A stretch of DNA of 64,000 bases, taken from the NCBI RefSeq assembly GCF_019175385.1, contig NC_083341.1:17864203-17928202 (forward strand). The letters run 5' to 3'. Position numbers and translations under genes: made by a program. This stretch comes from Lycium barbarum (Eukaryota; Streptophyta; Magnoliopsida; Solanales; Solanaceae). Positions 5,107-8,850 of the stretch are shown here, piece after piece (position 1 is the first letter of the stretch; each line of letters begins with the position of its first letter). The notes beneath the pieces are model-generated. The model made no database searches, was not told the DNA's origin, and saw only the letters and a list, made by a program, of their open reading frames with translations.

Positions 5107-8100
5107 CTAGACACAAACATAACTCCTAAAAATTTCATTGGAGTTGTTGCTGAAAGTTGGACCACTGAACATGTAAGGATAGTGAAATGACAGTGATGAA
5201 GAGCCAACTTGACGATTATTGTTATAAGCCAGCCCGTTATTGTTGATATGATAATTCATAGTCATAGTTGTTGGTGCCCTAGGGTTAAAAGTTATAGTTT
5301 GAATATCATTGATCCTAGGGCGTGGCCGCTCCATTGGAATCGTACTGTTCCGACGAGAAAAGTATTTTTGAGCATGACTAGCTACTTGGGTCGATGTCTT
5401 TGAAACAACATAGTATTTTGAGATGTTCTTCCAATTTCCTTTCCAAGTGCATTCAGGCCCATGAGAAATAACCTACATATACAATGCCACATCGTTAAGA
5501 AAATTACATATGTTTAATTGTTGAAAAAAATTAAGGAAAATTGAAATAAAAGTTTCTAACGGAATTAGTTATATGCTCTGTTAGTATGAAAAAAATTATA
5601 CTATTAGGCCACACAGAATATTTACAGGTAAGCCTACCTAATATATGAGATTTGTAATATTGAAATTGAAACAGATTACCTACTATAACAAATAAAGTTG
5701 AACCAGTGTTGTAAAAAAAATTATACTGACATTGTATATAATTTAAACTCTGATTAAAATTGAGGACAGAATTTTCGTATGGCAAAATTGAGAGTATTAG
5801 TGAGGAATATTTGCAGACAATAGAAGTAAATGAAATCAATTGCAAAACTATAAATAAAATTCTTGAAAACTAAGATTTGTTTATCTTGATTGTAATAGAA
5901 CTTATGCGTTAGTGGTCTAGCAGGGGTTTTCTTTTTAGGGAAATATTTCTTCCATGAAAAAGATGTTAAGCCTTCATATGAAGTTGAAGAAATATTTAAA
6001 TCACAAATAATGAAAAGGTAAATTCATACATCTAAGAAAAAACAAAAGGAAGTAATAAAAGAACTCAAATGAATTTAAAATTTACCATATAAGAAGCAAT
6101 AACAAACTCAAACTCATAAAACCAAATCTAACATGAAGAAATGTGCGATAAACCATAAAAATAAAGGTTGTAGAATGGTTTATGTGTAAGAGTCATGATT
6201 AAAAAAGGTAAAAGAAAAAAAAAAGCAAAAGCAGAATTTACTGGTGTTCCTCTATAGTTGATAAGTTGGTATTTTACCAACTTATCTCTTCTTTAATCTT
6301 ATATTTTTGCTATATTTTCTTGAGAAAATAGTGAATTTAATATCATTTACATCTACTTTACAGGTTTTATGTGATTTAGAAGTGATCAGAAGAAACCAAG
6401 TGAAAATTTAGTTAAAAAGAGGCCAAATGGGACAGTTTTGCAAAAACGGGACAGAACTGCAAAAAACGGGCAGAACTGCAAAAACTGAAAGTTGGGGCAT
6501 ATTTTGTCATTGTTTTGACTTGGAAAAATCTGGGCATAAAGAGAGGCTTAGGGCAAGAAAACATTTTCATCTTTGGCACAACACACAAGTTCTTGGAGGC
6601 TAGGGTTCATCACCAACACCTTGGAAGAGAAGATTTGGAGACACCAATGAGAAATTCTTTACCCATTTCTTCTACTCTTGCTATGTATTGAATATTTATG
6701 TGTGTAGTATTTCATTTCAATACTTGAATTTCGTTTATGGAAATATTCTTGATTAAAGTTTGGATTGAATCTCTTGTTTTGCTTATGTGTTGAATGATTT
6801 TATTCCTAATGAAGTGAGTTATTGTTTCTTTAATTAATCTCATTTTGAATGATTCTTAAGGGAGTAGCTAACCCTAAGACTTGCCCATTTATTTCGGTTT
6901 AAACTTGGAAGAGGCAAACTCGGGATTGGGAAAGATTAATTAACAAGAATTTGGGGCGTTAACCCTCATCTAATGGAAATCGACCTAGGAATAGGCGACA
7001 CCACTTGTAGCCATATTCGGGTGTTCTTAATGCTCCTAATTGCTTTAGGGATATTCAATTAGGTAGTCTAGTTGGTCTTCGGAAGAAGCTAATTTAGAGT
7101 CATTATCCGAGGCTAAGTAATATAAACTCACCATTATTTGTAAATCATGAAGTACATTGGATCGTTACTTGAGCGTAGTTTCCCTTGTATCCATGTTTGT
7201 GGCCATTGATCATTTTACTTGCTTTCTAGGTTAGTTTACATTTTTGCATTAGCTATAATTTTCTCTCAAACAAAACCAAAATATTATCCATCGTTTGGCT
7301 TTAGCTATCATTGGTGAAAATTCCTACTTTTCCTAATCGCCTACATATTGTTCTCTGTGGGATTCGACCCCGACTCATAGTTGGGTAAATATATTTGCAT
7401 ACGACCGTGCCCATTCTAATTAATAGGGTGGATTTGGACGTTATCAAAATGGCGCCGAGTAACGATCCAATGTACTTCATGATTTACAAATAATGGTGAG
7501 TTTATATTACTTAGCCTCGGATAATGACTCTAAATTAGCTTCTTCCGAAGACTAACTAGACTACCTAATTGAATATCCCTAAAGCAATTAGGAGCATTAA
7601 GAACACCCGAATATGGCTACAAGTGGTGTCGCCTATTCCTAGGTCGATTTCCATTAGATGAGGGTTAACGCCCCAAATTCTTGTTAATTAATCTTTCCCA
7701 ATCCCGAGTTTGCCTCTTCCAAGTTTAAACCGAAATAAATGGGCAAGTCTTAGGGTTAGCTACTCCCTTAAGAATCATTCAAAATGAGATTAATTAAAGA
7801 AACAATAACTCACTTCATTAGGAATAAAATCATTCAACACATAAGCAAAACAAGAGATTCAATCCAAACTTTAATCAAGAATATTTCCATAAACGAAATT
7901 CAAGTATTGAAATGAAATACTACACACATAAATATTCAATACATAGCAAGAGTAGAAGAAATGGGTAAAGAATTTCTCATTGGTGTCTCCAAATCTTCTC
8001 TTCCAAGGTGTTGGTGATGAACCCTAGCCTCCAAGAACTTGTGTGTTGTGCCAAAGATGAAAATGTTTTCTTGCCCTAAGCCTCTCTTTATGCCCAGATT

Positions 8101-8850
8101 TTTCCAAGTCAAAACAATGACAAAATATGCCCCAACTTTCAGTTTTTGCAGTTCTGCCCGTTTTTTGCAGTTCTGTCCCGTTTTTGCAAAACTGTCCCAT
8201 TTGGCCTCTTTTTGACTAAATTTTCACTTGGTTTCTTCTGATCACTTCTAAATCACATAAAACCTGTAAAGTAGATGTAAATGATATTAAATTCACTATT
8301 TTCTCAAGCAAATATAGCAAAAATATAAGATTAAAGAAGAGATAAGTTGGTAAAATACCAACTTATCAATAGTCCATGGAATTCCTCACCGACGACATGG
8401 ACGATTGTTTTCGCCTTGAGGTTGTGGCGTACCATTGGGAGTGGCCTCCATTTCAAAGTCATCTTGATCATGAGGCAGTCGGTAATCTTGATGATCATGA
8501 TCATCATCAGCTACAACAAATTTGTTTTTTGGGACAAGATTCTCCATTTCAACGTCTTTGAAGAGGGCTATGTAGCGGTTTTTTATCTCCTTCATGGACT
8601 TATGAGGGAGTATTGAAGAAATATATTCGAAAAAAGTTTGAGAAACTAGATCATCGACCTTAAAAAAGGCATTCTCAAAAAATTGTTTCTCCTCGAGAGT
8701 CCACTCATCTGATTGTGCAGCAACCTCACGGTTAGGGTGAGGTGCTGCGCCGAACAAATCAATTGTGTGCTCCTGAGAGTTTAGAATTTCTAGAGATTTA
8801 GGCCACTCCATTGAGGGAAGACGAAAAGGGCTAGTATATATGAAATTCAC
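5107..8850 (-). pseudogene. Two-repeat MYB (DIVARICATA/I-box binding type) pseudogene
   Basis: Exon 1 (8850 down to 6242) encodes a SANT/MYB repeat beginning EWTLEEKQFFENAF and ending near IKNRYIALF, then an acidic His/Asp tail and GIPWT, the usual start of the second repeat. Exon 2 (5472-5107) carries the second repeat with the family signature VASHAQKYF. The splice sites look intact (donor GTAAAT at 6241, acceptor TAG at 5473-5475).

Three lesions are visible: an in-frame TGA at 8386-8388 just before GIPWT, a 2,110-bp LTR palindrome inserted after the PWT codons, and a one-base loss near 5439-5442 that puts the start of exon 2 and the SHAQKYF part in different frames. The family members are plant transcription factors. 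This copy cannot make the full protein; a 154-aa single-repeat product up to the TGA is conceivable. Confidence 0.85.
6259..8368. mobile_element. Palindromic LTR dimer: two inverted Ogre/Tat-type LTR copies, 5-bp TSD
   Basis: Bases 6259-7446 form a complete LTR (TGATAAG...TTATCA, 1,188 bp) with the Ogre/Tat-like 3' motif GGGATTCGACCCCGACTC. It is followed by AAATGGCGCCG (7447-7457), the start of the usual Tat/Ogre primer binding site. From 7458 to 8368 comes the exact reverse complement of the first 911 bases of that LTR. In the outer 165 bases the arms differ at only two positions I could see. Both outer ends are therefore the U3 terminus. The insert is flanked by ATAGT at 6254-6258 and 8369-8373, so it integrated as one unit with a retroviral-type 5-bp duplication, inside a MYB exon. 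No coding sequence. Confidence 0.9.

What the first reader, a model, noticed from the sequence alone, without database searches (positions are those of the whole stretch)
6259..8368. Palindromic dimer of two inverted Ogre/Tat LTRs, integrated as one unit
A full 1,188-bp LTR is followed by the first bases of its primer binding site and then by a 911-bp exact-length reverse complement of its own start. Both outer ends are the U3 terminus, and a 5-bp duplication (ATAGT) flanks the whole. Normal elements end in U3 and U5 of direct LTRs. This looks like an aberrant cDNA (for instance snap-back of minus-strand DNA after the PBS) that integrase still accepted with two U3 ends. The near identity of the arms points to a recent event or a hairpin copied as such. 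The transcript could form a 0.9-kb hairpin and feed small-RNA silencing of the Ogre/Tat family.
Basis: partly seen in the sequence, partly recalled or inferred. Interest (0 to 1): 0.88.

Follow-up and report, generated by a model that had tools for sequence, protein, structure and literature searches.

The report
Back-to-back LTR pair inserted as one
In what is probably a nightshade-family plant, a jumping element seems to have pasted in two of its end repeats joined back to back, by a copying mistake, inside a gene; such ready-made hairpin DNA could in principle help the plant silence that element, but this was not tested.

Summary
A 1,188-bp LTR-like unit (6259-7446) is followed by AAA, 8 nt of a PBS-like sequence (TGGCGCCG) and the reverse complement of LTR bases 1-911 (7458-8368; 908 of 911 identical, no indel). 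ATAGT flanks both sides. New evidence: the insertion lies in exon 1 of a minus-strand SRM1/DIVARICATA-like MYB gene, now a pseudogene. With one ATAGT copy the coding frame crosses the site without a gap in 4 of 4 aligned homologues. So the duplication is real, the 2,110 bp entered as one unit, and a simple assembly error at the outer ends is very unlikely. Both outer ends are U3 termini, which an ordinary element cannot have.

Best explanation: integrase used two U3 ends of an aberrant reverse-transcription product; one stalled plus strand probably jumped to the 3' end of another plus-strand strong-stop DNA. End joining and later central deletion remain open. The decisive genome search did not complete (20 attempts), so recurrence and family are unknown. 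New variant of a known kind: aberrant retrotransposon cDNA integration.

The parts
6254..6258 (.). target-site duplication copy 1 (ATAGT)
   Evidence: the host reading frame is continuous when only one copy is kept
6259..7446 (+). complete LTR-like unit, 1,188 bp, TGATAA...TTATCA; U3 terminus outward
6260..6286 (.). 27-bp palindrome with a 3-nt centre at the U3 terminus (12-bp arms); its counterpart lies at 8341-8367
   Evidence: direct-repeat family D1; arms read from the sequence
7170..7457 (+). unpaired centre: LTR positions 912-1188 plus AAA and 8 nt of PBS-like sequence
7450..7457 (+). PBS-like TGGCGCCG, 3 nt after the LTR end (start of a tRNA-Asp type PBS, recalled, not looked up)
7457..7458 (.). 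junction: LTR-PBS piece joined to inverted LTR position 911, no clear microhomology
7458..8368 (-). inverted LTR positions 911-1; 908 of 911 identical to the left arm; U3 terminus outward
8369..8373 (.). target-site duplication copy 2 (ATAGT)
8374..8811 (-). host exon 1, 5' part (from the putative start codon), of an SRM1/DIVARICATA-like MYB pseudogene; in-frame TGA at 8386-8388
   Evidence: end points read by hand
6242..6253 (-). host exon 1, last 12 nt after the insertion; putative splice donor GTAAAT from 6241
   Evidence: read by hand
5107..5472 (-). host exon 2 (second MYB domain with SHAQKYF motif) with a one-base frameshift
   Evidence: Pfam Myb_DNA-binding E 0.0018, below its curated cut-off

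Best explanation
The 2,110-bp inverted LTR pair is the product of one integrase-mediated insertion of an aberrant cDNA with a U3 terminus at both ends (close to shown). Most likely route (inferred): two plus-strand strong-stop DNAs were present together. One had stalled at LTR position 911; it jumped to the free 3' end of the other, which had read 8 nt into the primer-binding site, and copied it back to its 5' end, the U3 terminus fixed by the polypurine-tract cut. The second molecule's 3' end then copied the first back to its own U3 terminus. This gives in two steps a linear duplex with two U3 ends that integrase can use, and a blunt join with one breakpoint inside the PBS.
For: Inverted arms and exact U3 termini at both outer ends. 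ATAGT on both sides, and the exon reads on without a gap at the site when one copy is kept, in 4 of 4 solanaceous homologues aligned (4 chosen from the 120 listed of 201 found), so the duplication arose at insertion of the whole unit. LTR termini TGATAA/TTATCA and a PBS-like 8-mer 3 nt downstream. The left arm stops inside the PBS, where plus-strand strong-stop DNA ends (established scheme, recalled). The right arm stops exactly at U3, as run-off at a strong-stop 5' end would. Little homology at the join, as a jump to a template end allows. Template-switched complex insertions flanked by TSDs are known in cereals (PMC1950507, abstract and main section read), though tandem.
Against: Only one copy could be examined: all 20 genome searches did not complete. 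A full strong-stop DNA should carry about 18 nt of the primer tRNA (recalled), not 8. No full-length family member was seen, so LTR and PBS identity rest on the termini and an 8-mer. The three arm differences fit two source molecules but equally later mutation. The 2 (or, counting AG, 4) pairs at the join do not exclude weak annealing.
Confidence: 0.6

Rival explanations
1. Two separate cDNA molecules each contributed one U3 end to a single integration event (U3/U3 intasome), or two broken cDNAs were ligated before it; the free inner ends were then trimmed and joined by host end joining.
For: Join without clear homology at arbitrary inner breakpoints; three differences between arms; TSD and two U3 ends fit equally.
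Against: Does not explain why one inner breakpoint lies 8 nt into the PBS rather than anywhere in a multi-kb element.
Confidence: 0.22
2. A larger inverted dimer (two 5' halves, tail to tail, U3 ends outward) was integrated and its centre was later deleted, from PBS+8 on one side to LTR position 911 on the other.
For: Long palindromes lose their centres readily (general knowledge); the join lacks clear homology.
Against: Needs a random deletion endpoint to fall within 8 nt of the LTR-PBS border; no internal sequence remains.
Confidence: 0.1
3. A DNA transposon of the foldback kind with 911-bp terminal inverted repeats, not an LTR product.
For: Long inverted arms with a TSD.
Against: The centre completes an LTR-like unit: TTATCA mirrors the TGATAA start and a PBS-like 8-mer, mean 0.14 per shuffled window, follows 3 nt later. 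A 5-bp TSD is usual for plant LTR elements (PMC11963269, one passage) and, as I recall, not for the common plant DNA transposon superfamilies.
Confidence: 0.04
4. Assembly artefact (inverted chimera).
For: Inverted duplications are a common artefact of long-read and amplified libraries (general knowledge).
Against: The second arm ends exactly at the U3 terminus and is followed by the same 5 bp and then by the rest of the interrupted exon; a fold-back chimera would not resume in the gene.
Confidence: 0.04

Closest known systems
Template-switching complex LTR insertions in Triticeae, rice and maize (Sabot and Schulman 2007, PMC1950507; abstract and main section read)
   Same: One TSD-flanked insertion made from more than one template, explained by an error of reverse transcription
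   Different: Those are tandem: three LTRs and two internal regions. The words inverted and palindrom do not occur in that text. Here two LTRs are inverted, there is no internal region, and both ends are U3
Inverted Ty LTR pairs in yeast (PMC5065131, PMC3536649, PMC3554576; one to four passages each)
   Same: Two LTRs of a family facing opposite ways at one place
   Different: The passages seen treat inverted LTRs as sites or possible sites of chromosome rearrangement, and say nothing of a shared TSD; here one TSD flanks the pair
Mu killer of maize (PMC3440606, abstract read)
   Same: An inverted duplication of transposon sequence, proposed to be read through from a flanking gene into a long hairpin RNA
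   Different: DNA transposon, with silencing measured; here an LTR pair brought in by integration, and no RNA or silencing data
Antisense nested EVD copy in Arabidopsis (PMC11624286, passages read)
   Same: Inverted LTRs of one family at one locus, proposed as a hairpin or convergent-transcription source of LTR siRNAs
   Different: There two insertions, one nested in the other, with LTRs 2562 and 1942 bp apart; here one insertion with 288 nt between the arms
Autointegration products of Ty1 and retroviruses with inverted LTRs (recalled; the Ty1 paper looked for is not held)
   Same: Aberrant cDNA with LTRs in inverted orientation
   Different: Those are circles whose new joint carries an integrase-processed LTR end; here the joint has none and the product is a linear insertion

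Membership tests
LTR retrotransposon insertion by integrase (single event) | short direct target-site duplication | tested here: met
   ATAGT at 6254-6258 and 8369-8373; exon frame continuous with one copy, 4 of 4 aligned homologues without a gap at the site
LTR retrotransposon insertion by integrase (single event) | LTR termini TG...CA | tested here: met
   TGATAA...TTATCA
LTR retrotransposon insertion by integrase (single event) | PBS just after the 5' LTR | tested here: inconclusive
   TGGCGCCG 3 nt after the LTR; only 8 nt present; tRNA-Asp match recalled, not tested
canonical full-length LTR retrotransposon | two LTRs in direct orientation around an internal region | tested here: not met
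   second arm is inverted and no internal region is present
solo LTR | one LTR between TSDs, ends U3 and U5 | tested here: not met
   both outer ends are U3
TRIM or LARD | direct LTRs around a short or non-coding internal region with PBS and PPT | tested here: not met
   arms inverted
DIRS-type retroelement | inverted terminal repeats around ORFs with a tyrosine recombinase (PMC5633606, passages), no TSD (recalled) | tested here: not met
   a TSD is present and only 288 nt lie between the arms
Tat clade, with Ogre | polyprotein with extra RNase H domain (PMC6317226, passages) | not testable with these tools
   no internal region here; genome search unanswered in 20 attempts
Mu killer-like silencing locus | hairpin RNA and family silencing | not testable with these tools
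   no RNA data; only the predicted hairpin

The most novel reading that the evidence does not exclude
Reverse-transcription errors of LTR retrotransposons regularly produce short linear cDNAs with two U3 ends that integrase accepts, so that a single insertion can plant a ready-made LTR hairpin with two inward-facing promoters inside a gene; such loci could start heritable small-RNA silencing of their own family, as Mu killer does for MuDR.
Probability: 0.15. Interest if true: 0.8.

Novelty: new variant of a known kind. Interest (0 to 1): 0.52.

Why it matters
An integrated two-U3 product shows, in a natural genome, that a plant retrotransposon integrase does not need one U3 and one U5 end, and it preserves a reverse-transcription intermediate that is normally lost. 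If such insertions recur, they are a simple source of LTR hairpins. These were sought as a possible first trigger of LTR siRNAs in Arabidopsis EVD lines: no close inverted LTR pair was found, a wider search found one antisense nested copy, and whether it made siRNAs was not tested (PMC11624286, passages). The signature (two U3 ends, one TSD, a join at the PBS) is easy to scan for. On this evidence it is one copy in a dead gene.

Tried and rejected
Single-molecule snap-back: rejected as the main route, because it leaves one duplex end only and the 3' end has a run of 2 pairs at the join, a value reached at 96 of 1168 LTR positions; with AG counted as part of the primer, 4 pairs, reached at 35 of 1168.

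Autointegration: rejected, since no LTR terminus lies at the inner join. Rearrangement of an ordinary element after insertion: rejected, since the right end of an ordinary element is U5 and could not become an exact U3 end next to the TSD. Two separate insertions, the usual way to inverted LTR pairs: rejected, since one TSD flanks the pair and the inner join lies inside an LTR on one side.

Dimer of two strong-stop DNAs through the palindrome GGCGCC in the PBS: considered; it predicts A after GGCGCC, but G is found, so it needs an extra untemplated base as well as a central deletion.

Relatives elsewhere: a 24-nt and a 21-nt LTR pattern gave 0 hits in viral contigs, and the 21-nt one 0 in genome contigs; these collections hold viruses, bacteria and archaea, so little was to be expected. 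TTATCANAANTGGCGCCG gave 25 viral contigs; none of the 25 has an LTR match at E up to 1e-3, so I take them as chance. A first protein search with a 140-aa exon piece gave 5 candidates and no hit. An R/U5 border near LTR position 911 could not be fixed from sequence: only weak motifs, such as CATAAA at 277 and AATATA at 861 and 1130.

Literature: ten searches showed me no paper that I recognised as describing an inverted LTR pair integrated with one TSD. The listings were often partial: 20 of 202, 15 of 3,316 (19), 15 of 76 (36), 20 of 40 (41), 10 of 15 (53); two searches asked other questions. The direct phrase search listed 15 of 15, of which I opened 5. In all I opened 11 papers: PMC1950507 (abstract and main section), PMC3440606 (abstract), and by passages PMC6317226, PMC11963269, PMC5633606, PMC11624286, PMC5668417, PMC5065131, PMC3536649, PMC3554576, PMC8786324. 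Subscription journals are mostly not held, so this is no proof of absence.

Correction of my own notes: note 2 says the TGA lies 8-9 codons before the site; it lies 4 codons before the TSD (8386-8388). Note 1 gives 1/1024 for the TSD chance; the computed local value is 0.0018.

Full report
The observation. The inverted repeat is real: arms 6258-7169 and 7458-8369, 288 nt apart. Counted from the outer ends the arms differ at 3 of 911 positions with no indel, and identity ends abruptly at LTR position 912. The left part is a whole LTR-like unit of 1,188 bp (TGATAA...TTATCA), then AAA, then TGGCGCCG, then the inverted copy of LTR 911-1. ATAGT lies on both sides.

The insertion site settles the main question. 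The flanks belong to a minus-strand gene. Joined with one ATAGT copy they read ..RR*GIPWTIEEHQ.. and then a likely splice donor; exon 2 follows at 5472 after a 769-nt intron (exon ends read by hand). The protein is an SRM1/DIVARICATA-like SANT-MYB factor: 201 proteins score E up to 0.001 (120 listed), the best from Anisodus tanguticus (68% identity), Lycium barbarum (65%) and Datura stramonium (62%), so the host is very probably a member or close relative of the nightshade family. The single exon pieces alone match the Pfam Myb domain only below its cut-off. I aligned four of the listed proteins (P0001, P0002, P0003, P0005; the last from tobacco). None of the four has a gap at the site; the nearest gap column lies 17 residues upstream. 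Two copies of ATAGT would add 5 nt. The duplication is thus a true target-site duplication, and the whole 2,110 bp is one insertion. This also makes an assembly error at the outer ends very unlikely.

The gene copy is dead: an in-frame TGA four codons before the TSD (8386-8388) and a one-base frameshift in exon 2, unless the latter is a sequencing error in a run of G. At the site the four homologues have E where this copy has I; the changed bases would lie in both ATAGT copies, so that substitution is probably older than the insertion (assuming the ancestor had E). This hints weakly that the gene was already drifting.

Why it is odd. An ordinary element or solo LTR ends in U3 on one side and U5 on the other. 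Here both ends are U3. No later rearrangement of an ordinary insertion that I can think of gives an exact U3 terminus next to the TSD, so integrase must have joined two U3 ends (inference from anatomy).

How it may have formed. The left arm ends 8 nt inside the PBS-like sequence, where plus-strand strong-stop DNA ends; the right arm ends exactly at U3, where such a DNA begins (general knowledge of the cycle). I favour a jump of one plus strand, stalled at position 911, to the 3' end of another, and extension of both to their U3 ends. That yields a linear duplex with two U3 ends from two molecules. The join shows 2 (or, counting AG, 4) terminal pairs, no more than at many other places in the LTR (96 and 35 of 1168), so annealing probably did not choose the site. 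Against this: 8 rather than about 18 nt of PBS (recalled), and a single case. End joining of two cDNAs, before or after integration, explains the same facts except the PBS position; a central deletion of a larger dimer is a third route.

Age. If the arms were identical at birth, 3/911 corresponds to about 0.13-0.24 million years at 1.3e-8 to 7e-9 substitutions per site per year (the rates are assumed). If the arms came from two molecules, the insertion may be younger.

Family. TGGCGCCG would fit a tRNA-Asp type PBS (recalled). Non-chromovirus lineages use mainly tRNA-Ala, -Arg, -Asp, -Lys and -Trp (PMC6317226, passages), so the 8-mer does not name the lineage.

Possible effect. An RNA from 6568 to 8059 would fold into one long hairpin, -1155 kcal/mol, which follows from the palindrome and is no evidence of expression; the start point 6568 is my guess from a weak TATA-like motif. 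If the LTR has a promoter, the two would face inward, and transcription of the host gene would also run through both arms. Mu killer is the known parallel: an inverted duplication, proposed to be read through from a flanking gene (PMC3440606, abstract; the same abstract reports that individuals that failed to silence made sense read-through transcripts and no antisense ones, so read-through alone was not enough). LTR hairpins were sought in Arabidopsis EVD lines as a possible trigger. No close inverted pair was found; a wider search found one antisense nested copy, in one of two silenced lines; it was not tested as an siRNA source, and the authors note that hairpins usually give several siRNA sizes while the LTR siRNAs were mostly 24 nt (PMC11624286, passages). 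No small-RNA data were available here.

Known or new. Template-switched complex insertions with a TSD are known but tandem (PMC1950507). Inverted LTR pairs are mentioned in yeast, without a shared TSD in the passages seen. I found no report of an inverted LTR pair with one TSD in ten searches of an open-access library with partial listings, which is no proof of absence. Verdict: real, well supported as a single two-U3 insertion, a new variant of aberrant retrotransposon integration; recurrence, family and function untested because the genome search did not complete (20 attempts).

Noticed in passing
5107-8811 (-): SRM1/DIVARICATA-like MYB pseudogene of a probably solanaceous host, interrupted by the finding; stop codon, frameshift and shortened C-terminus.
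   Followed up: yes
8386-8388: The in-frame TGA stands where the four aligned homologues have R; a CGA to TGA change would be a CpG transition 12 nt from the TSD, perhaps methylation spreading from the insertion (speculation).
   Followed up: no
6260-6286 and 8341-8367: The first 27 bp of the U3 end form a hairpin of their own (12-bp arms, 3-nt loop).
   Followed up: partly
1857-4351: Probable degraded copia-type element: repeats 1857-2606 and 3591-4351 (94% identical over 762 columns) around a short stretch whose ORFs look by eye like RT/RNase H remnants (Pfam gave only a sub-threshold DUF4219 for 2658-3113); TGGTATCAGAGC (tRNA-Met type PBS, recalled) follows the first repeat.
   Followed up: partly
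41634-42075 and 55220-55645: 93% identical direct repeats 13.6 kb apart with an integrase-type ORF (Pol_BBD, gag_pre-integrs, rve) at 51749-52873 (-) between them.
   Followed up: no
43037-43493: Two short stretches (49 and 47 nt, 80-83%) shared with the LTR of the finding, near a TATCA end at 43539: perhaps a distantly related LTR.
   Followed up: partly
60951-63914 (+): 987-aa open frame with endonuclease/exonuclease/phosphatase and reverse transcriptase domains (LINE type); partly matched at 72-76% by 9149-9732 and 9778-9923.
   Followed up: no
10510-10637 and 11320-11447: 128-nt inverted repeat, 88% complementary, 682 nt apart.
   Followed up: no
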